57,314 nucleotides of DNA from an uncultured Mediterraneibacter sp. (GTDB lineage Bacteria > Bacillota > Clostridia > Lachnospirales > Lachnospiraceae). This document shows positions 5,460-37,335 of this stretch, one piece after another. The stretch covers positions 1 through 57,314 of the forward strand of contig CALWAR010000001.1 in assembly GCA_944375765.1 (NCBI GenBank). The letters run 5' to 3'. The number at the start of each line of letters is the position of its first letter. The first letter of the stretch is position 1. Made by a program: the position numbers and the translations under genes. The notes below the pieces were generated by a model that worked only from the letters and a program-made list of their open reading frames with translations, made no database searches and had not been told where the DNA came from.

Positions 5460-6374
5460 TCAGCAAAAACGCTGTATTGACGCGCGGATCTGCTCCGCAC
5501 AGGCCTCTGCGATCTTCTCGTCGCCCGTCTCCATCCCGGGCAGTGGTCTGCGGACCGTACCGATATTCACGCCAAAGCTTTTTAAGATTTCTTTCTGGAC
5601 CGCATAGAGATTCGCCTTTGCCGTGCACATGTCATAGATGATCCCGCAGCATACATTCTGGATCTCCAGCGCTTTTTCCATCTCGCCTTTCAGAAAGTGT
5701 TCATAAATCTTCATATACAGTTCCGGCATGACCGCGTACGTCCCGCCGATGCCCCCGGCCGCCCCCATGGCAAGACCTGACAGGAGCTGTTCGTCAGGAC
5801 CGTTAAACACGATCATTTCTCCTTTTCCCTCCGCCAGGAACATCTGGATATCCTGGGCGGCAACAGAAGAATTTTTAACGCCGATCATCCTCGGATTCTT
5901 CCGCATTTCTCTCAGAAGATCCACCGTCAGCGCCACTCCGGCAAGCTGAGGGATGTTGTAAATGATGAAATCTGTATCCGGCGCGGCGCCGGATATATCG
6001 TTCCAGTACTGAGCGATGGCATAAGGAGGCAGATGAAAGTAAATGGGAGGGATTGCCGCAATGGCGTCTACCCCCAGACTCTGCGCGTGTTCTGCAAGGT
6101 GCATGCTGTCAGCCGTATTGTTGCAGGCCACATGGGCGATCACTGTCAGCCTGTCTCCCACTTCTTTCATCACGCTCTCCAGCGTTAATTTCCGTTCTTC
6201 CACACTCTGATAGATACATTCCCCGGAGGAACCCCCCACGTAGAGTCCTTTCACACCTTTCTCCGCCAGACAGGAAGCCAGCGCCGCCGTCCTTTCTGCA
6301 CTCACTTTTCCTGCGTCGTCATAGCAGGCGTAAAACGCGGGAATGATCCCTCTGTATTTATCAAATCTGTCCAT
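5460..6374 (-). CDS. nanA: N-acetylneuraminate lyase
   Basis: Class I aldolase expected to split sialic acid into ManNAc and pyruvate. The 304-residue barrel has GGSSGE (47-52, binding the pyruvate carboxylate), the YNIP tyrosine (Y139), and the Schiff-base lysine in GVKNSS (K167). FNGPDEQLLSG and GGTYAVMPELY correspond to the substrate-side loops of NanA. The family also includes dihydrodipicolinate synthase and other lyases, so sequence alone leaves some doubt. The adjoining nanE, nanK and sugar ABC transporter make sialic acid the best reading. Translation probably starts at 6374, 25 bases after the permease gene. Confidence 0.9.
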   Translation of the reverse strand: MDRFDKYRGIIPAFYACYDDAGKVSAERTAALASCLAEKGVKGLYVGGSSGECIYQSVEERKLTLESVMKEVGDRLTVIAHVACNNTADSMHLAEHAQSLGVDAIAAIPPIYFHLPPYAIAQYWNDISGAAPDTDFIIYNIPQLAGVALTVDLLREMRKNPRMIGVKNSSVAAQDIQMFLAEGKGEMIVFNGPDEQLLSGLAMGAAGGIGGTYAVMPELYMKIYEHFLKGEMEKALEIQNVCCGIIYDMCTAKANLYAVQKEILKSFGVNIGTVRRPLPGMETGDEKIAEACAEQIRASIQRFC

Positions 6375-6399: not shown

Positions 6400-7227
6400 T
6401 TATCCTTTCACCGCTCCCATTGTAATCCCTCTCGTAAAATATTTCTGGAACAAGAGGAAGATCGTAATGATCGGAACTGCCGCAAGAGCAGCGCCGGCCA
6501 TGATCAGCCCGAAATCTGTCGACATCTCTGCCTGCAGTTTCGCAATTCCCAGAGAAATGGTCAGCTTTGTCCTTGAGTTCAGCATGATCAGCTGGAGGAA
6601 ATAGTCATTCCAGCAGTTAATAAACGTAAAGATAGCAAGCGCTCCGATCCCCGGTTTTATGATAGGAAGCGCGATCTCCGTAAAGGTGCGGGCCTCCCCG
6701 GCCCCGTCGATCCTTGCCGCCTCCAGAAGCTCACCCGGTATGTTTTCCGAGAACTGCTTCATGAGAAACACGCCGAAAGGCCAGCCTACAGTCGGAAGGA
6801 TCACAGCCCACATCGTGTCATGAAGATGGAGAAACGCCATCTCACGCAGCAGCGGGATCAGGATCACCTGCTTTGGCAGCGCCATGGCACAGATAAATAT
6901 GCTGAACAGGAGCGTCCTTCCTATAAAACGCTTTTTTGCAAGCGCATATCCTGCCATAGACGCGGTCACGCAGGTCAGGATCATGGACACCACGGCCATG
7001 GCGACACTGTTAAACAGCCACAGGAGCGCCGGATTGTCAAACAGTCTCTCATAGTTGTCAAGGGTCGGAGACATCGGGAACCACTGCGGCACAGCGTCGT
7101 TAATGTCTGCCGCTGTCTTAACCGATCCGGTCAGGATCCAGTACAGCGGAAAAAGAAAGAGAAAAGCAAGAATGGCAAGAATAGCAACTGCCACCACTTT
7201 ATATGGCGTAATTTTTATTTTTTTCAT
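6400..7227 (-). CDS. Carbohydrate ABC transporter permease, second (MalG-like)
   Basis: A 275-residue inner-membrane subunit of a CUT1 sugar importer with six predicted transmembrane segments; the first is near 12-32. The EAA loop that contacts the ATPase is visible as EAARIDGAGEARTFTEIALP. It begins 14 bases after the first permease gene and precedes nanA. I infer that it imports sialic acid with its two neighbours. No ATPase gene is present in the operon, so a shared MsmK-type ATPase encoded elsewhere is probably used. Confidence 0.92.
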   Translation of the reverse strand: MKKIKITPYKVVAVAILAILAFLFLFPLYWILTGSVKTAADINDAVPQWFPMSPTLDNYERLFDNPALLWLFNSVAMAVVSMILTCVTASMAGYALAKKRFIGRTLLFSIFICAMALPKQVILIPLLREMAFLHLHDTMWAVILPTVGWPFGVFLMKQFSENIPGELLEAARIDGAGEARTFTEIALPIIKPGIGALAIFTFINCWNDYFLQLIMLNSRTKLTISLGIAKLQAEMSTDFGLIMAGAALAAVPIITIFLLFQKYFTRGITMGAVKG

Positions 7228-7241
7228 TGTCCTTTCCTCCT

Positions 7242-8150
7242 CTAATCATTCTTTCTTCCGGCTACCTTGAACTGGATCGCGGAGAAGACTGCTATGATAA
7301 TGGCGAGGATAACTCCCATTGCGTTTCCATATCCGTAACGGTACAGTCTGAATGCCTGATAATAAATATAATACATGATCGTTTCTGTGGAGTGGTTCGG
7401 TCCGCCCGAAGTCAGCAGCTGGATCAGAGCATAGCACTGGAAGCTGTTGATCGTTGTGATAACAAGGATATACAGCGTGGTAGGCATGATCTGAGGCCAT
7501 TTGATCTTCCAGAATACCTGACGGGACGTGGCTCCGTCCACCTGAGCCGCCTCAATGAGCGATTCGTCCACATTGCCCAGCGCGGATACGTACAGGACGA
7601 CCGGCTGTCCCACAGAAGTGGTGAGCAGGATCAGGATGATACACCAGATCGCCGTCCTCTCATCTCCAAGCCAGCTTATATCTGAATCAATAATGCCCGT
7701 CTCTCCCAGAACATAATTAAACAGTCCGGTATATCTGTTGAACATCCACTTCCACACAACGGTTACTGCAACCGTACCTGTCACTACGGGCAGGTAGAAG
7801 ATGCAGCGGAAAAAGGAGCATACCGCTCCGTTCATCTTATAGATCACGGAACTGACCCAAAGAGAAAATACCGTCACCACCGGCACTGCGACCACTACGA
7901 TGAGGATCGTGTTCAGCAGCGCTCTGATAAAAATTTCATCCTGGAACATCTCCACATAGTTGGAAAAACCTACAAATGCAAATTCGGTCATGGAATAGTT
8001 GAAAAAGCTGGTCACCAGACACATGACCATGGGCACGATAACGAATCCAACAAAGAAGATGAGCGCCGGCAGCAAAAACAGATATGCCGAGATCGTTTCC
8101 CGGCGTATAAGCGCTTTCTGCATGCCAGTCGGTTTCATTCGCTTATTCAC
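7242..8150 (-). CDS. Carbohydrate ABC transporter permease, first (MalF-like)
   Basis: A 302-residue CUT1 permease with six predicted transmembrane helices, an N-terminal cytoplasmic segment rich in Lys and Arg, and the EAA loop EAAQVDGATSRQVFWKIKWP. The start codon is GTG at 8150, preceded by AGGAGGG at good spacing. The 114-base gap to the binding-protein gene contains complementary GCGGAA/TTCCGC segments and TTCCGCTTTTT on the minus strand. These could form an attenuating hairpin that lets the binding protein be made in excess, a common layout. Confidence 0.92.
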   Translation of the reverse strand: MNKRMKPTGMQKALIRRETISAYLFLLPALIFFVGFVIVPMVMCLVTSFFNYSMTEFAFVGFSNYVEMFQDEIFIRALLNTILIVVVAVPVVTVFSLWVSSVIYKMNGAVCSFFRCIFYLPVVTGTVAVTVVWKWMFNRYTGLFNYVLGETGIIDSDISWLGDERTAIWCIILILLTTSVGQPVVLYVSALGNVDESLIEAAQVDGATSRQVFWKIKWPQIMPTTLYILVITTINSFQCYALIQLLTSGGPNHSTETIMYYIYYQAFRLYRYGYGNAMGVILAIIIAVFSAIQFKVAGRKND

Positions 8151-9814: not shown

Positions 9815-11731
9815 ATGATACTCGCATGTCATAATATTGAAAAATCTTTTGGCGACCGGGTGATCGTCCATGAGGGTTCTTTTCATATAGAAGAACGGGA
9901 AAAGGCCGCTCTGGTCGGTGTAAACGGCGCCGGAAAATCTACTATATTAAAAATGATCATGGATGAGGAGCCGCTTGACGGAGGGGATATTATTCTCGCC
10001 AAAGGAAAAACGATCGGTTATCTCGCCCAGCACCAGAATCTGCTCCCCGACGGTACGATCTATGAAGAGGTTCGTTCCGCAAAGGCGGATATTATTGAAA
10101 TGGAACAACGGATCCGTTCGATCGAACTGGAATTGGACTCTCTTTCCGGAAAGGAACTGGAAAGCCGTCTTGATACATACAACCGCCTGCAGTCCGAATT
10201 TGAATCCCGCAACGGATACGCCTGCGAAAGCGAGATCGTCGGCGTGCTCAAAGGACTCGGCTTTACAGAGGGGGATTTCAGCAAGAAGACCGACACCCTG
10301 TCAGGAGGTCAGAAGACGCGCGTGGCTCTGGGGAAGCTGCTGCTCACTGATCCGGACGTCCTTCTTCTGGACGAGCCTACCAATCACCTTGACCTTAATT
10401 CCATCGCATGGCTGGAAGCCTACCTGATCAACTATCCGGGAGCCGTTTTCATCGTATCCCACGACAGATATTTTCTGAACCGCGTCGTCACTAAAGTCGT
10501 AGAGATAGAAAACGGCGAAATCCGCATGTATATGGGTAATTATAAGGCATACTCCGTCAAAAAGCAGCAGCTTCGCGACGCAAGACTGAAAGAATACTTT
10601 AATCAGCAAAGAGAGATCAAACATCAGCAGGCAGTCATCGACAAGTTAAAATCCTTTAACCGTGAAAAGTCCATCCGCCGCGCAGAAAGCCGCGAAAAAA
10701 TGCTTGAAAAGATCAGACCGGTAGAAAAGCCTGCGGAAGTCAATACCGAAATGCATTTTACTCTTGAACCGTCCTGTGTCAGCGGCAATGACGTCCTGAC
10801 TGTGGAGCATCTTTCGAAACAGTTTGACGGTCAGATGCTTTTTCACGACGTCAGCTTTGAGATAAAACGCGGAGAACATGTAGCGGTGATCGGCGACAAC
10901 GGAACAGGCAAGACTACGCTTTTAAAGATATTGAATCAGGTTCAGGCTGCGGATACCGGCTCCTTTACGCTCGGCGCAAAAGTTCAGATCGGTTATTATG
11001 ACCAGGAACACCATGTGCTCCATGATGATAAAACGATATTTGAGGAGATCTCCGATGAATATCCGACGCTTACAAACACACAGATCCGTAACACGCTTGC
11101 CGCATTTCAATTTACAGGCGACGAAGTCTTTCAGGAGATACGTTCCTTAAGCGGAGGCGAAAAAGGCCGTGTATCTCTGGCGAAACTCATGCTCTCCGAG
11201 GCAAACTTCCTGATCCTGGATGAGCCCACCAATCATCTGGATATCGCGTCAAAAGAAATACTGGAAGAAGCTCTCAATAACTACAGCGGCACTGTGCTGT
11301 ATGTGTCTCATGACAGATATTTTATCAACAGTACTGCCACGAGGATACTTGAGCTCGTCAACCGGACTTTTGTAAACTATATCGGCAATTACGATTACTA
11401 TATCGAGAAGAAAGATGAACTGACACAGGCGTATGCACCTGCGGCCGGAACTACCGGAAAAAGTTCCGACGACACGCCGGGCTCATCTCGTCTGAACTGG
11501 CGGGAACAGAAAGAGCAGCAGGCAAAAGAGCGCAAGCGTAAAAACGACCTTAAGAAAGCCGAGGAAGAGATCAGCCGCCTGGAAGACCGTAACTCCCAGA
11601 TCGACCACGAAATGACGCTGGAAGAAGTCTACTCTAATTCCGTCAAATGCCAGGAACTGGCAGAAGAACACGCTGCAAACGAAAAAAGACTGGAGGAGCT
11701 GTACGAGATGTGGGAGATGCTGGCTGAGTGA
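9815..11731 (+). CDS. ABC-F family ATPase (YdiF-like)
   Basis: A 638-residue soluble protein with two ABC ATPase domains and no membrane part. Domain 1 has Walker A GVNGAGKS (35-42), signature LSGGQ and LLLDEPTNHLD. Domain 2 has GDNGTGKT, LSGGEKGR and LILDEPTNHLD. A charged linker of about 80 residues lies between them, and the C-terminus is a long Glu/Lys coiled coil (about 545-638). ABC-F proteins act on ribosomes; some give antibiotic protection and others help translation. The C-terminal coiled coil and overall layout fit the housekeeping YdiF/Uup types better than a resistance factor. It is transcribed alone, divergent from the nan operon. Confidence 0.93.
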   Translation: MILACHNIEKSFGDRVIVHEGSFHIEEREKAALVGVNGAGKSTILKMIMDEEPLDGGDIILAKGKTIGYLAQHQNLLPDGTIYEEVRSAKADIIEMEQRIRSIELELDSLSGKELESRLDTYNRLQSEFESRNGYACESEIVGVLKGLGFTEGDFSKKTDTLSGGQKTRVALGKLLLTDPDVLLLDEPTNHLDLNSIAWLEAYLINYPGAVFIVSHDRYFLNRVVTKVVEIENGEIRMYMGNYKAYSVKKQQLRDARLKEYFNQQREIKHQQAVIDKLKSFNREKSIRRAESREKMLEKIRPVEKPAEVNTEMHFTLEPSCVSGNDVLTVEHLSKQFDGQMLFHDVSFEIKRGEHVAVIGDNGTGKTTLLKILNQVQAADTGSFTLGAKVQIGYYDQEHHVLHDDKTIFEEISDEYPTLTNTQIRNTLAAFQFTGDEVFQEIRSLSGGEKGRVSLAKLMLSEANFLILDEPTNHLDIASKEILEEALNNYSGTVLYVSHDRYFINSTATRILELVNRTFVNYIGNYDYYIEKKDELTQAYAPAAGTTGKSSDDTPGSSRLNWREQKEQQAKERKRKNDLKKAEEEISRLEDRNSQIDHEMTLEEVYSNSVKCQELAEEHAANEKRLEELYEMWEMLAE

Positions 11732-12105
11732 ACTTCGTGTTTGCCGGGGAGACTGCCGATGATATAAGATCCGAAAACGGGCGGAGATGAGTCACGGAAA
11801 TACTTTTTTTGCGAGGAACGGCATGTGCTTCAGGCTCCGCTCCATAATCTGAGAAAAACTAAAGGATCTGAAATCTGATGAAAAGCAAAGCCGCAAAATG
11901 GACAACTCGCTTTTGGCTCAGACAGTCCATTTTGCGGCTTAACATCAGCTTCCAGCTCCTTAACTTTTTCTGACAGATTATTCCGAAGTCGCCTTCCCCA
12001 CATACCGCTCATCTCATTTAAGTCTTCCTGCACCTCATCTCTATCCGTTTTCTGCTTTGTCTCATCCGGCAGTCACTCCAACAAAACCGAAAGCTAAAAA
12101 GCCGT
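11732..12105. repeat. Large palindromic repeat, copy 1 (minus orientation)
   Basis: An imperfect inverted repeat whose arms extend about 165-175 bases each side, starting at the stop of the ABC-F gene. The apex is a perfect 16-bp stem, 11888-11903 against 11925-11940, with a 21-base loop. Read on the minus strand, the loop contains TGTCTGAG and CGAGTT. Further out, arms pair again: CGGTATGTG with CACATGCCG (12006-11998 with 11830-11822), and the GACTGCCG/CGGCAGTC region near 11751 and 12065. It shares conserved blocks with copies at 12158 and 15092. The unit fills half of the gap between two convergent genes. No credible coding region is present; a short open frame across the loop is a by-product. 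Confidence 0.8.
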
Positions 12106-12157
12106 TTGAAAGAGGCGCGTAGTTGATAAACTTTGCCCTTTCGATCGGTTTTCTGTA

Positions 12158-12526
12158 AATTCCGCGATTGCCGGGGAGGCACTTCCGATTGGATGAACGC
12201 AGAAAATCAAATGGATACAGCCGACATGATGCACCTTTCGGACAGTCGGGATCGTAATGCGGCCGGTGACTGTGTAAGGTCGTTAGTCAAAGTTAAAGCC
12301 TGTGGTATGGCGTTAATCAGGCAAATGAAGTTGTCTGAGTAAAACGAGTTCTTCATTTGCCTGATTGCTTTTAGCCACATCGCAGGCTTGTTACTTTGTC
12401 TTATGGCCTGTAACCGGAGCCGGAAGCATTACGATCCCGACTGTTCCGAATATATGCGTCACTCCACTGTATCCGCCTGATTTTCGGACGATTTATTAAG
12501 TAAAGTCTCCACGGCAAACACGAATT
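12158..12526. repeat. Large palindromic repeat, copy 2 (plus orientation)
   Basis: The second copy has a perfect 16-bp apical stem (12315-12330 with 12351-12366) and a 20-base loop containing TGTCTGAG and CGAGTT. A near-perfect outer stem of about 23 bp pairs ACAGTCGGGATCGTAATGC (ending at 12260) with its complement near 12424-12445. Imperfect pairing continues to 12158 and 12526. Conserved blocks outside the apex are CGGTGACTGTG, AAAGTTAA, TTTTAGCCA, TTGTTACTTTG and ACCGGAGCC. It ends three bases before the stop of the convergent membrane-protein gene. Confidence 0.82.
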
Positions 12527-12528
12527 TC

Positions 12529-12927
12529 TTACTTCTTCCTGCACATGGGATACCACAGTACGGCCGCCGCAAAGCTGACGCCCGCCAGTCCTCCTGCAAT
12601 TATGCATCTCAGATACTCTGCCGGCCCGGACGCCGTCATAATTATTCCTGCAAAGCAGACTCCTGCGATCACGGGATGGCAGATGAGCCAAAGGGCATTG
12701 ACACATCCGATGAAATATTTCATGAGTCTGATGTTCAGACAGTAAAGAACCAGAGGGACGATGTAACTTCCTCCGCACATTATAAGATTGAAGTACATCC
12801 CGGCGCTTCCAAACCGTGTGCCGTTCCCTGTTTTCGCAAGCGGCGTAAGCGTCACTGCAATGAGTTCACAGCCAAACAGCACAGCCGCTATTACTGTCCA
12901 GAGGATCACCCTTTCTTTTTCTTTCAT
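12529..12927 (-). CDS. Small membrane protein of unknown function
   Basis: A 132-residue protein with four hydrophobic segments (about 8-28, 44-64, 68-95 and 105-126), a charged MKEKER start and a CRKK end, so it probably sits in the membrane with both ends inside. I do not recognise the family. It is divergent from the LytTR two-component genes and is not an AgrB-type protease (too short, no conserved His/Cys pair). A TGTTATGAT extended -10 (12974-12979 on the minus strand) lies just downstream of two TGTCATTT repeats, so the adjacent response regulator may control it. The ribosome site is AAGGGG before the ATG at 12927. Confidence 0.75.
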   Translation of the reverse strand: MKEKERVILWTVIAAVLFGCELIAVTLTPLAKTGNGTRFGSAGMYFNLIMCGGSYIVPLVLYCLNIRLMKYFIGCVNALWLICHPVIAGVCFAGIIMTASGPAEYLRCIIAGGLAGVSFAAAVLWYPMCRKK

Positions 12928-13007
12928 GCTATTTTCCCCTTTCCATTCCGATTTCTATCGGGATTTTTTAGCTATCATAACAGAAAAAGCCGGTAATATT
13001 GCGGGGC

Positions 13008-13083
13008 TGTCATTTCCGGTATATCCGCATGTCATTTTTGAACGCTTTGGGCGCTTGTCTGTCTTGTGCAAAAGAATTATACT
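13008..13083 (+). promoter_or_regulatory. Promoter of the LytTR operon with two direct repeats
   Basis: TTGTCT (13055-13060) and TATACT (13078-13083) have a 17-base spacer. Upstream lie two direct repeats of TGTCATTT at 13008-13015 and 13030-13037, spaced 22 bases start to start (two helical turns). This is the layout used by LytTR-domain regulators. The repeats also sit just upstream of the divergent promoter of the membrane-protein gene. Confidence 0.65.
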
Positions 13084-13116
13084 GTTATTAAATACAAAGA
13101 TCCGGAGGAATATATC

Positions 13117-13827
13117 ATGTTATCTGTCGCCATCTGCGAAGACAATGTCCCGGTACAGTCTCAGCTTGAAAACTATATACATGAACTGTTCAGCAGCTGT
13201 CCGGTGGAGGTCTTTTCTTCCGGCGAAGAGCTGCTCTCCTGCCTTGAGGAAAAAGAAAACAACTTTTCCATTTATCTGATGGATATCTCTCTCCCCGGAA
13301 TTTCCGGGATCGAGACTGCTGCGGCCATAAGAGCCCGTGATCCATATGCTCTGATCCTGTATATCACCGATTACAGAGAGTATGTGTACCAGGTCTTTGA
13401 GACGCTTCCTTACCGCTTTATCCTCAAACCTGTCGACAAAAACATATTCCAGAAATCACTGTCCGACGCCATGAATTACTGTACGGACCGGAAGAAAATG
13501 TTTCTCTTTCACATTGACCGGTCACAATATCAGATCCCTCTGCAGGAGATCGTATATTTTGAATCGCATCTTCGCCGTATTACACTCCATACCCAGAAAG
13601 AAGCCTACACTTTCTACGGACGGCTTCAGGATCTGACCGCCGGACTCAATCCGATGCTTTTTGTGCGTACACATGCTTCTTATATTGTAAATATGGAGTA
13701 TATACGTGTTGTCCGCGAGACAGAAGCCGAACTGCAGACCGGCGAACGCATCCCTGTCAGCCGGAAGCACCGCACTTCTGTCCGTTCAGAGCATCTGAAA
13801 TATATGAAATGGAGAACAACGCAATGA
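13117..13827 (+). CDS. LytTR-family response regulator
   Basis: A 236-residue two-domain regulator. The receiver domain (1-120) has the acidic pair E8/D9, the phospho-acceptor in YLMDISLPG (D56) and the conserved Lys in LKPVDK. The C-terminal LytTR DNA-binding domain (about 135-230) has IVYFESHLRRITLHT, FVRTHASYIVN and IPVSRKH. An earlier ATG at 13066 is possible, but the ATG at 13117 follows CCGGAGG and gives the normal receiver start. Its stop overlaps the kinase start as ATGA. Such pairs usually sense peptides or cell-envelope states; no peptide precursor was found nearby. Confidence 0.94.
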   Translation: MLSVAICEDNVPVQSQLENYIHELFSSCPVEVFSSGEELLSCLEEKENNFSIYLMDISLPGISGIETAAAIRARDPYALILYITDYREYVYQVFETLPYRFILKPVDKNIFQKSLSDAMNYCTDRKKMFLFHIDRSQYQIPLQEIVYFESHLRRITLHTQKEAYTFYGRLQDLTAGLNPMLFVRTHASYIVNMEYIRVVRETEAELQTGERIPVSRKHRTSVRSEHLKYMKWRTTQ

Positions 13828-15110
13828 TATACTTCACACATTATGATATTTATCTCAATACCTTTCTCTGTGTGATCGACATGATCGTTATCATGGAGCT
13901 CCGGGAACGCATCTACGGCCGTATCATGCGCCTGCGCGGCGTATGCATCGCACTGTCCGCCGCACTTGCAGTGCTGATCATGATCCTGCCGGAATCATAC
14001 AGAAATACTTACCTCACTCTCCCTGTCAGCATGGTACTGCTCCCCTTTTATCCGAAGAATCTTAAGAAGAAACTGCTGTTTGAAGTCTGTCTGTTTTCAA
14101 GCGTCTTCACGTATATGATGACTCTCAATGACATCACAAACATGACTCCCCGTTTCAGTGAACGGGTGATAACGTATATCGCCCTCTATCATGCAGGCCT
14201 CTGGATCCTCCTGTTTGTCGTTCTGAGACTGTGCAGAAATATAGATACAGACATCCCCCTGTCATTGTGGTCTGTCTTTCTCCTGATACCAGTCTGCATC
14301 TTTGCAAGTTCGGCTGCCCTGATCCCTCTTTTGGGCAGCAGTTACCTGTCGAGACCAGAGTCCGACATACTGCACCTGATCGTTCAGGCAACGTTTTTGT
14401 TCATTAATCTTGCACTTCTGGAGTTTTTGCAGAAATTCACAGGATACTTTCAGAAAGAAAAAGAACAGAGCCTTCTCAGACAGCAGCTCCAGTATCAGGA
14501 AAGTCATTATCAGCACCTGATCCGTTCGTCCGAACAGATACAAAAGATTCGCCATGATATGAAAAATCATCTTCAGACGCTGTCGATCCTGTATCATGAG
14601 AACAGAACCGATGAACTGCAGGAATATCTTCGTCAGACTTACGAACTGCTCGACAATTCCGGGCAGATCATATCCACAGGGAACCCGTCATTTGACGCGG
14701 TCCTTAATATCAAACTGGCGGAAATGGCCAAAACCGGTATTTCCTGCTCTCCCGCTCTCTCGATCCCCCGTGGACTGGCTCTGCCATTCTCCGATACAGT
14801 GACCATACTGGGAAATCTGCTCGATAACGCAATAAATTCATGCACTGCCTCTTCGACCGTAACCCTCTCGGTCACATGGCAGCAGGGGACACTCTTCCTG
14901 CACATGGAGAATCCGTGCACAGCCGCCGAAAAAGCTCCTTACGGGATCGGAATGAAAAATGTAGAAGAGACAGTAAAGAAACACTCCGGTACTATGAGCA
15001 CAGAAGTAAAAGACGGAAAATACATAACAGATCTCATACTCTACAAAATAGAGATACGACACACAGAAGAAACTCCTGATTTGATAACTCTTTCATCCAT
15101 GGAAGGATAA
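13824..15110 (+). CDS. GHKL sensor histidine kinase (AgrC-like class)
   Basis: A 428-residue membrane kinase with about six hydrophobic segments in residues 1-205 and a cytoplasmic kinase core. The phospho-acceptor motif is RHDMKNHL (H244), the N box is NLLDNAINSC (N335), and GIGMKNV is the G box. I chose the ATG at 13824, which overlaps the regulator stop and has GGAG upstream. A start at 13809 has no ribosome site. The last five codons and stop lie inside the left arm of palindromic repeat copy 3, so the mRNA ends in that structure. The signal is unknown. Confidence 0.92.
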   Translation: MIYFTHYDIYLNTFLCVIDMIVIMELRERIYGRIMRLRGVCIALSAALAVLIMILPESYRNTYLTLPVSMVLLPFYPKNLKKKLLFEVCLFSSVFTYMMTLNDITNMTPRFSERVITYIALYHAGLWILLFVVLRLCRNIDTDIPLSLWSVFLLIPVCIFASSAALIPLLGSSYLSRPESDILHLIVQATFLFINLALLEFLQKFTGYFQKEKEQSLLRQQLQYQESHYQHLIRSSEQIQKIRHDMKNHLQTLSILYHENRTDELQEYLRQTYELLDNSGQIISTGNPSFDAVLNIKLAEMAKTGISCSPALSIPRGLALPFSDTVTILGNLLDNAINSCTASSTVTLSVTWQQGTLFLHMENPCTAAEKAPYGIGMKNVEETVKKHSGTMSTEVKDGKYITDLILYKIEIRHTEETPDLITLSSMEG

Positions 15111-15299
15111 TGAGGTCGGCGACTGTGGAGGGGAATTATGAAAAGTTAAAAGCAGGGAAATGGCATTAAGTGGAAAAATGCGGTTGTCTGAGCTTGCGAG
15201 TTCCGCATTTTTTCACTTGTTTTTAGCCATTTTCCTGCTTTGTTACTTTGAGTTATTTCCTGCAACCGGAGCCGAAATCATTATCCCTCCATGGATGAA
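15092..15299. repeat. Large palindromic repeat, copy 3 (plus orientation)
   Basis: The third copy has a 16-bp apical stem with one G-T pair (15168-15183 with 15203-15218) and a 19-base loop carrying TGTCTGAG and CGAGTT. The outer arms TTCATCCATGGA...GGATAATGA (from 15092) and their complement (to 15299) are almost perfect. It shares CGGCGACTGTG, AAAGTTAA, TGGCATTA, TTTTAGCCA, TTGTTACTTTG and ACCGGAGCCG with copy 2. It spans the whole gap between the kinase gene and convergent degV, and overlaps the kinase stop. It may act as a two-way terminator. Confidence 0.82.
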
Positions 15300-15304
15300 T
15301 ACGT

Positions 15305-16168
15305 TTACCTCTTATTCCCCATACAGAACACCGCTACGACTCCCGGCCCTGTATGGCTTCCGATCACGGTTCCGATATTGTTTATCAGGATATTGTCGAT
15401 CCCCATCTTCTCGCGAACAAGCTTCGCCACATATTCTGCATCGTCAAGACAGTCCCCGTGAGTGATCATGATGATGTCGTTATCCCATCCTTTAGACTGT
15501 TCGACCGCCATATCTACGATCCTGTTGAGTGATTTCTTTCGTCCCCGCTCTTTTCCGATCACCTGGAGTTTTCCGTTGTCGTCCATATGTATGATCGGTT
15601 TTATCTGAACCAGCGTTCCGAGTACAGCCGTTGTCTTGGACACACGGCCGCCCCTGTGCAGGTGGTTCAGGTCGTCTACTGTCACGTCATGACAGATATG
15701 GAGTTTATTCTCTTCCACCCACTCTGAGAGTTCGTCGATCGTCATTCCTTTTTCTTTCTGCTGGAGCGCTTTGTACAGAAGGAGACCCTCGCCAAGGCAG
15801 GCGCAGAGCGTATCGATCACGATCACTTTCGCCTCGGGGTACTTCTCCTGAAGAGTCTCTCCCGCGATCTTCATGCTGTTCAGAGTTCCGCTTAAAGCGG
15901 ATGAGAAGCCCAGATGCAGGATGTCTTTCCCGTCTTTTAAGAATGGCTCCAGCAGATCTGCCGCCTCTTCGGGGTTTACCTGGGAAGTAGTGGACATCTT
16001 CCCCTCTCTTAATTTTGCAAAAAACTCTTTTGCCGTCAGCCCTTCCATATCTGTATATGTCTCGCCGTCGATCGTGTACCTTAACGGGACTACGGGGACA
16101 TTTCTCTCCTCGAGCCACTCTTTTGGCAGATCAACAGTACTGTTCACTGTGATCACATATTCTCTCAT
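15305..16168 (-). CDS. DegV family fatty-acid-binding protein
   Basis: A 287-residue DegV protein. Members such as FakB bind a fatty acid and present it to the FakA kinase for use in phospholipids. Characteristic segments are TVDLPKEW near the start, STTSQVNPEEA, LHLGFSSALSGTLNS, DTLCACLGEG, LNHLHRGGRVSK and a C-terminal IGSHTGPGVVAVFC. No FakA gene is nearby. It has its own promoter at 16240-16268 and an AGGAGG site before the ATG. A short hairpin (CTGCATA...TGTGCAG) lies in the leader. Which fatty acid it binds cannot be told. Confidence 0.93.
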   Translation of the reverse strand: MREYVITVNSTVDLPKEWLEERNVPVVPLRYTIDGETYTDMEGLTAKEFFAKLREGKMSTTSQVNPEEAADLLEPFLKDGKDILHLGFSSALSGTLNSMKIAGETLQEKYPEAKVIVIDTLCACLGEGLLLYKALQQKEKGMTIDELSEWVEENKLHICHDVTVDDLNHLHRGGRVSKTTAVLGTLVQIKPIIHMDDNGKLQVIGKERGRKKSLNRIVDMAVEQSKGWDNDIIMITHGDCLDDAEYVAKLVREKMGIDNILINNIGTVIGSHTGPGVVAVFCMGNKR

Positions 16169-37086: not shown

Positions 37087-37335
37087 AACTCCGCCTCAGT
37101 TAAGAGACGAAGTCATATCCGCGGTTCCACTCTATTAAAAGGATCGTTCCTTTCACTCAGGCTGCATGTAACGTATGCGGTACGTATCCCGCTACTGCTG
37201 TCTTCACGGGATCGGCTCCCGGACGCACTTCACATCTCCTCCGCACAAGGATGCTTGCAGCCGACGGCATCCTCTCTCTGTGAACTTCTGAACATGCTAC
37301 TCTTTCCGTTCTCAGCCTTTACTTTTCTGACATAT
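37087..37335 (-). promoter_or_regulatory. Cysteine T-box leader of the cysE-cysS operon
   Basis: A tRNA-sensing leader of about 250 bases. The T-box sequence AGAGTGGAACCGCGG is at 37119-37133 on the minus strand. The terminator stem pairs 37104-37114 with 37087-37097 and is followed by TTATTTTATT. In stem I, GAAGTGCGTCCGGGAGC places the specifier TGC (Cys) at 37225-37227; AGAGAGGATG and TGCAAGCATCC form other stem I parts. When tRNA-Cys is uncharged it should pair with the T-box bulge and allow read-through into cysE. Confidence 0.92.

What the first reader, a model, noticed from the sequence alone, without database searches (positions are those of the whole stretch)
11732..15299. Family of three giant palindromes with a conserved apical loop and variable stems
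Three inverted repeats (11732-12105, 12158-12526, 15092-15299) each have a 16-bp apical stem and a 19-21 base loop. In all three the loop keeps TGTCTGAG and CGAGTT, joined by a variable piece (CCAAAAG, TAAAA, CTTG) whose end bases change together (C-G, T-A, C-G). The stem sequences differ fully between copies yet pair in each, which is covariation in a single genome. Outer blocks (GGYGACT, AAAGTTAA, TTTTAGCCA, TTACTTTG, GGAGCC) are shared. All copies sit between convergent genes. This suggests a structured RNA, two-way terminator or mobile palindromic element present in many copies in the genome. From general memory, the Rfam skipping-rope motif is one described long hairpin family to compare with; I cannot confirm a match.
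Basis: partly seen in the sequence, partly recalled or inferred. Interest (0 to 1): 0.72.

Follow-up and report, generated by a model that had tools for sequence, protein, structure and literature searches.

The report
Dispersed giant DNA hairpins after genes
These three giant hairpins belong to a scattered, multi-copy family of DNA elements that mostly sit right behind the stop codons of unrelated genes, and they matter because they look like a mobile family, absent from the RNA-family library searched, that has taken the place of ordinary transcription terminators.

Summary
In detail: three giant palindromes with a shared cap (TGTCTGAG..CGAGTT) and differing stems. They belong to a dispersed family: 15 cap matches in this genome, control 0; model matches in 28 of 37 genomes of the genus, own included, and 1 of 24 others. 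Caps also occur patchily in other Bacillota (12 of 398 genomes) and in the phylum of a Desulfobacterales genome (14 of 297). No Rfam 15 family matches.

The elements have inverted terminal repeats, no coding capacity, and occur singly (~370 bp) or as back-to-back pairs (~580-800 bp). In this genome 13 of 15 ends abut a stop codon. At two loci, relatives without the element mostly carry a short terminator-like hairpin there. Stem mismatches show only a modest G.T over A.C excess (71 vs 52), so the covariation is poor evidence for an RNA.

Best reading: non-autonomous palindromic mobile DNA that colonises gene 3' ends, replaces native terminators and probably serves as the new transcript end. 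Mobiliser, insertion chemistry and termination are inferred. An RNA remains a rival; 'always between convergent genes' is not general.

The parts
11732..12528 (.). Two-hairpin element filling the space between the stop codon of the ABC-F gene and that of the convergent DUF5391 gene; ends ACTTCGTGTTTGCCGGGGAGA (11732-11752) and, inverted, AATTCGTGTTTGCCGTGGAGA (12506-12526)
   Evidence: (I3)
11732..12105 (-). Hairpin copy 1; cap TGTCTGAGCCAAAAGCGAGTT at 11904-11924 on the minus strand
   Evidence: two near-complete relatives in the genome (C63, C84; 93% and 91%)
12158..12526 (+). Hairpin copy 2; cap TGTCTGAGTAAAACGAGTT at 12332-12350
   Evidence: R1 174.9 bits at 12265-12421
15092..15299 (+). 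Hairpin copy 3, a shorter version without the outer repeat; cap TGTCTGAGCTTGCGAGTT at 15185-15202; left arm overlaps the last codons of the kinase gene
   Evidence: R1 156 bits at 15118-15273
9815..11731 (+). ABC-F type ATPase gene whose stop codon the element abuts
   Evidence: Pfam ABC_tran, ABC_tran_Xtn, ABC_tran_CTD; most full-length orthologs align to the last residue, with or without an element behind them
12529..12927 (-). DUF5391 protein gene, convergent neighbour
13809..15110 (+). GHKL sensor kinase gene; its end overlaps the left arm of copy 3
15305..16168 (-). DegV gene, convergent neighbour of copy 3

Best explanation
These are non-autonomous mobile DNA elements ('giant-hairpin MITE-like elements'). 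Each unit is a long, near-perfect palindrome closed by an inverted terminal repeat of about 20 bp (AATTCGTGTTTGCCGGGGAGA in this genome), with a conserved cap (TGTCTGAG-N-CGAGTT) and a row of conserved internal-loop blocks; units stand alone or as back-to-back pairs. They colonise the 3' ends of genes, mostly settling directly behind the stop codon, and the native terminator is lost; the element then probably serves as the new end for the neighbouring transcripts. Stem sequence drifts while the two arms stay complementary, through selection for the palindrome or through copying of one arm from the other (undecided). Shown: family, patchy multi-copy spread, terminal repeats, lack of coding, stop-codon position, element-free loci with short native DNA instead, weak strand preference of stem mismatches. 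Inferred: transposition in trans by an unidentified enzyme, replacement of the terminator, termination activity.
For: Multi-copy: 15 cap matches, control 0; 15 terminal-repeat matches, control 0; several contigs start or end inside copies. Patchy spread: 28 of 37 genus genomes, own included, 1 of 24 others; 12 of 398 and 14 of 297 genomes in two surveys, own and G082 included, nine of them with 6-21 caps, control 0 in each. Units: 20 of 24 facing end pairs measure 367-391 or 576-795 bp, longest open stretch 63-123 codons; the other four measure 234, 515, 2138 and 2992. Ends: 13 of 15 within 8 bases of a stop codon of an ORF with at least 141 open codons. Presence/absence, bases between matched flank pieces: C134 locus 735 here, 694, 366, 365, 310, 287 with element or remnant against 151 and 113; C80/C45 locus 718 and 717 against 108, 93, 80, 44. 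The same end sequence closes different inner hairpins (types B, C, D; by eye). Stem mismatches G.T 71 / A.C 52.
Against: No mobilising enzyme found: Y1 transposase is absent from three of nine element-bearing genomes and present in six of seven genomes without R1 matches. No constant target-site duplication seen by eye at the loci compared. No clean insertion into an otherwise intact site was seen: native intergenic DNA is missing, so replacement or later deletion must be assumed. Cap-strand excess of G.T: 166 vs 69, 29 pairs against 11 in the model alignment, 89:61, 111:68 and 21:8; some support for an RNA or single-stranded role of that strand. In unpaired copies the two sides are alike: stop codon within 150 bases on the gene-sense side in 21 of 38, on the other in 16 of 38 (16 and 15 with the stricter ORF limit), so the one-sided bias comes mostly from the pairs. 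Arm copying is favoured by only one of four sets. At C80 the element cuts into the gene's last codons.
Confidence: 0.55

Rival explanations
1. A structured non-coding RNA (or 3'-UTR RNA element) transcribed from one strand, with conserved loop blocks that bind a protein; the multi-copy spread is secondary.
For: 33 of 54 pairs with two-sided changes; conserved cap and blocks shared with a Desulfobacterales genome; G.T exceeds A.C 166:69 in the model alignment and 21:8 in apical stems.
Against: Model-free mismatch count is 71:52, and G.T is only 21 of 784 apical pairs; patchy, multi-copy distribution; no promoter-like site within the window copies; transcripts running in from the gene would carry the strand opposite to the cap.
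Confidence: 0.2
2. Conserved native two-way terminators / 3'-end stabilisers, inherited vertically and homogenised by recombination between copies, not mobile as such.
For: Hairpins or remnants directly behind the ABC-F gene in 12 of 29 relatives read, with different stems and types (by eye); stop-to-stop fit; no intrinsic terminator found between the window's convergent genes.
Against: Relatives at C134 and C80/C45 have short native DNA, mostly a plain hairpin, instead; terminal repeats shared by unrelated inner hairpins; exact cap pattern in only 11 of 267 genera surveyed.
Confidence: 0.17
3. REP/REPIN-like hairpins moved by a RAYT-type (Y1) transposase acting on single-stranded DNA.
For: Inverted pairs, position at gene 3' ends, hairpin with conserved head.
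Against: No Y1_Tnp match in G000, G087 and G082, all with many copies, but matches in G001, G028 and G035, which have no R1 match; size is about ten times a REP (REP size recalled).
Confidence: 0.05
4. Assembly artefact of a metagenome-assembled genome.
For: Contigs end in copies; L017 looks chimeric.
Against: Same elements in better assembled genomes, e.g. G087 (one 3.3-Mb contig, 23 caps) and G020 (about 60 contigs, 23 matches).
Confidence: 0.02

Closest known systems
MITEs (miniature inverted-repeat transposable elements; features recalled)
   Same: Short, non-coding, multi-copy, inverted terminal repeats, intergenic
   Different: Whole body is a giant palindrome with conserved cap and variable stems; no constant target-site duplication seen; abuts stop codons; no autonomous partner found
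REP / BIME / REPIN elements (PMC3116915, search listing and start of abstract seen only; the rest recalled)
   Same: Palindromic, dispersed, inverted pairs, 3' ends of genes
   Different: 200-370 nt instead of a few tens; no link with a Y1 transposase
Rfam skipping-rope RNA (RF02924)
   Same: Hairpin-rich intergenic element; one copy in the same genome
   Different: 80-position, branched model with other conserved letters; no match to our copies
Paired DNA-uptake sequences as terminators (PMC1852404, search listing and start of abstract seen only; the rest recalled)
   Same: Dispersed repeats whose inverted pairs act as terminators
   Different: Those are short; these are giant hairpins without a T-run
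Integron attC sites (recalled)
   Same: Palindrome behind a stop codon, structure kept while stem sequence varies
   Different: Dispersed behind unrelated genes, not in a cassette array; attC boxes and integrase were not searched

Membership tests
MITE | Inverted terminal repeats | tested here: met
   (I3)
MITE | No coding capacity | tested here: met
   longest open stretch 63-123 codons in the 20 units of 367-391 or 576-795 bp
MITE | Many copies per genome | tested here: met
MITE | Target-site duplication | tested here: inconclusive
   no constant duplication by eye at loci; no clean empty site
MITE | Related autonomous transposon with the same ends | tested here: inconclusive
   none recognised among fetched loci (the 2138- and 2992-bp rows were not examined further); no whole-genome test
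REP/RAYT | RAYT / Y1 transposase in the genome | tested here: not met
   none in G000, G082, G087 (G000 is 92.8% complete)
skipping-rope RNA RF02924 | Match to the covariance model | tested here: not met
Any other Rfam 15 family | Match at gathering score | tested here: not met
   window and 23 other loci; only other RNAs found
Intrinsic terminator | GC-rich stem followed by a T-run | tested here: not met
   none of the 4 hits lies in 11732-12528 or 15092-15304
Intrinsic terminator | Ends transcripts in the cell | not testable with these tools
   needs Term-seq or a reporter
Integron attC | attC end boxes and an integron integrase | not tested
   features recalled; boxes not scanned, integrase not searched

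The most novel reading that the evidence does not exclude
A cross-phylum class of palindromic mobile DNA that spreads by taking the place of native transcription terminators from stop codon to stop codon, is recognised as a folded single DNA strand through its conserved cap (tandem G.A pairs around a short loop), and keeps its arms complementary by copying one arm from the other, so that it shows RNA-like covariation without being an RNA.
Probability: 0.2. Interest if true: 0.85.

Novelty: new variant of a known kind. Interest (0 to 1): 0.6.

Why it matters
If right, many gene 3' ends in gut Lachnospiraceae and some other bacteria are occupied by a mobile hairpin family that replaces ordinary terminators, which bears on transcript ends and genome annotation. 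It is also a warning for RNA discovery: stems that covary strongly across copies need not be RNA, and counting G.T against A.C mismatches gives a cheap check.

Tried and rejected
Skipping-rope RNA: one match elsewhere in the genome, none at the copies. Rfam at E up to 10 on 11600-15400: two chance-level hits. Y1/RAYT transposase as the mover: no correlation. A gene hidden between the two hairpins: an apparent conserved peptide turned out to be a third, very conserved hairpin type (C) read in frame, with frame shifts between copies. Plasmid and phage DNA searches (one query each): no match. Cap in viral contigs: 36 stretches with 38 caps; 8 of 38 have a stem score of 8 or more, one of them (L241) only over 25 positions, so many of the rest may be chance. 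Literature by sequence strings and by topic: nothing recognised as this family in the listings; one search listed one paper with the word skipping-rope, papers on template switching. One- versus two-sided changes: B67 set 58 single / 17 double below 5%, 108/97 at 5-10%, 244/390 at 10-15%; An76/tabaqchaliae 120/11 and 87/19 at 5-10 and 10-15%; G082 195/97 at 15-25%; own genome 91/2 at 10-15% (2 sequence pairs) and 378/76 at 15-25%. Only 11 distinct tRNAs were at hand as an RNA control for the mismatch test, too few to use. Of its 115 matches, 89 were used (66 of the 89 there); left out were second-strand reads, truncated and weak matches. One search used the first 97 rows of alignment A2.
Full report
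What is there. The window holds three giant palindromes. Copies 1 and 2 together fill 11732-12528, the space between the stop codons of an ABC-F gene and a convergent DUF5391 gene; copy 3 (15092-15299) lies between a GHKL kinase gene and a convergent DegV gene. The folds are far better than shuffles (z -10.6, -16.0, -11.8).

The family. The cap pattern occurs at 15 places in the genome and never in the reversed control. An 11-copy alignment (A1) shows 33 of 54 predicted pairs with two-sided changes. The covariance model R1 built from it gives 30 matches in the genome, second-strand reads included (150 of 586 candidates scored). Among relatives 29 of 61 genomes match: 28 of 37 of the same genus, own included, and 1 of 24 from other families of the order (stricter filters and at most 49 candidates scored per genome, so counts are lower bounds). 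A Desulfobacterales genome (G082) holds 9 caps, each at the tip of a long hairpin with a TTTTAGC-type block or a variant of it. Nine of ten genomes or records searched through loci have the cap. Surveys with the stricter cap pattern: 12 of 398 genomes of the window's phylum (11 of 267 genera, own included) and 14 of 297 genomes of G082's phylum (G082 included); nine of these 26 have 6-21 copies, eleven have a single one, control 0 in every genome. Twenty further places were fetched; by eye most show a long hairpin around the cap, but several are cut by a contig end and in L370 and L381 the cap is not at the tip of a long stem. No Rfam 15 family matches at the copies; skipping-rope is a different element with one copy on contig C83.

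Anatomy. On the strand opposite to the cap (gene-sense) the element starts after a stop codon with (A)ATTCGTGTTTGCCGGGGAGAC or a host-specific version of it, and ends with the inverse. In this genome 13 of 15 such ends lie within 8 bases of the stop codon of an ORF of at least 141 open codons, sometimes sharing letters with it; one of the two exceptions faces the start of a sigma-factor-like gene (my reading of the translation). In the looser, 40 of 89 places with the short motif TTCGTGTTTG (one mismatch allowed, chance matches included) have such a stop of an ORF of 60 or more codons. Twenty of 24 facing end pairs give units of 367-391 bp (one hairpin) or 576-795 bp (two), with no ORF of note; the rest measure 234, 515, 2138 and 2992. 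Of 16 neighbouring hairpins at most 1,024 bases apart, 15 are back to back (-,+) and one is (-,-). Over 66 hits with enough flank, a stop of an ORF of 100 or more codons lies within 150 bases on the gene-sense side in 43, on the other side in 23, on both in 16; random positions in the same loci give 101, 86 and 22 of 430. For the 38 unpaired hits the figures are 21, 16 and 11 (16, 15 and 7 with 150 codons), so single copies are near gene ends on either side and the bias comes mostly from pairs. Convergent pairs are enriched but not the rule (18 of 49 clusters). In two Blautia loci a native terminator-like hairpin with a T-run stands between the stop codon and the element (L085, L147).

Element-free sites. 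Downstream of the ABC-F gene, 12 of the 29 relatives read carry such hairpins or remnants, of different stems and types, and in 7 the DegV gene follows closely instead (by eye; 30 of 57 matches were fetched, own included). Flanks of seven own-genome loci were searched in ten relatives and 20 stretches fetched. Distances below are bases between matched flank pieces. At the C134 locus (seven of ten relatives measurable) it is 735 here, 694 in G004, 366 in G036 and 365 in G002 (one hairpin, from stop codon to stop codon), 310 in G076 and 287 in G074 (remnants), and 151 and 113 in G070 and G009, which have a short plain hairpin. At the C80/C45 locus (seven measurable; in this genome the two gene ends lie on different contigs) G004 and G066 have 718 and 717, G064 2312 (not fetched), while G074, G020, G009 and G070 have 108, 93, 80 and 44, in the first three with a hairpin that overlaps the stop codon. 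In G004 and G066 the right arm of that native hairpin and the DNA behind it are gone. At C80 in this genome the element reaches into the last codons of the gene, so the stop-codon fit is not absolute. Different inner hairpins (types B, C, D) share the same end sequence, and a further type (E) occupies the copy-3 site in G036 and G004 (by eye).

RNA or DNA? In folds that allow Watson-Crick pairs only, distinct single mismatches inside helices are G.T 71, A.C 52, others 70 on the cap strand (G082 alone 3 and 1, G087 8 and 7). An RNA on the cap strand should tolerate G.U much better than A.C. Looser flank rules give 89:61 and 111:68, apical stems 21:8 of 784 pairs, and the model-based alignment 166:69, 29 pairs against 11, so a preference for the cap strand remains. 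Apical stems differ widely in sequence and yet are 93% Watson-Crick (56 distinct stems). In one of four sets (B67) two-sided changes exceed one-sided ones at 10-15% divergence; in the other three one-sided changes prevail. Copying of one arm from the other by template switching (a process named in PMC8604942; start of abstract seen) is thus possible, not shown. I lean to DNA-level function, without proof.

Function. Between the window's convergent genes no intrinsic terminator is found by the simple scan (its 4 hits in the region are near the shuffled mean of 2.9 and none lies in the element DNA), and where the element sits the native one is lost. The likeliest role for the host is as a transcript end in both directions; for the element, persistence at a harmless site. 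The mobiliser is unknown: Y1 transposases are absent from three of nine element-bearing genomes and present in six of seven without R1 matches, no autonomous copy was recognised, and no constant target duplication was apparent.

Verdict. A real, widespread, apparently undescribed family, closest to MITEs and REP-like elements but unlike both in size, variable stems, conserved cap and stop-to-stop placement. 'Undescribed' rests on Rfam and on the paper searches in the held library only, of which I saw listings.

Noticed in passing
L193:3635-3980, L190, L047, L131, L115, L141 and others: A second hairpin type (C) with very similar sequence across species (around GGAGCGTTCCGAATACACCTCGTTCTCCATG) stands in the partner position of the pairs; no Rfam match to it at gathering score in the 8 loci scanned.
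   Followed up: partly
G036:C15:45570-45790, G004:C80:24650-24880, L196: A further hairpin type (E) with block GAGCGCGTCTTTTGCGCTCTTATGTACCGC or a variant, at the copy-3 site or behind the ABC-F gene.
   Followed up: no
L079, between hairpins at 6183-6340 and 7097-7252: A reading frame that looks VanZ-like by eye lies between the two hairpins of a pair; not tested against a library.
   Followed up: no
G000:C83:56140-56208: One skipping-rope RNA (RF02924), 44.9 bits, in the same genome.
   Followed up: yes
window 37100-37322 (-): T-box leader, 123.8 bits.
   Followed up: no
L311 (G087:C2:2149200-2154200): Four caps in one orientation, spaced 558, 731 and 558 bases, with almost the same sequence; one copy runs into an N.
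   Followed up: no
L378, L379, L380, L187: Outside Lachnospiraceae the hairpin is followed by a T-rich block (CTTTCTTTTGCTTCTTC... or similar), perhaps a partner terminator.
   Followed up: no
G004:C40:18170-19410: At the C63 locus G004 has about 1.2 kb of other, apparently coding DNA instead of the element.
   Followed up: no
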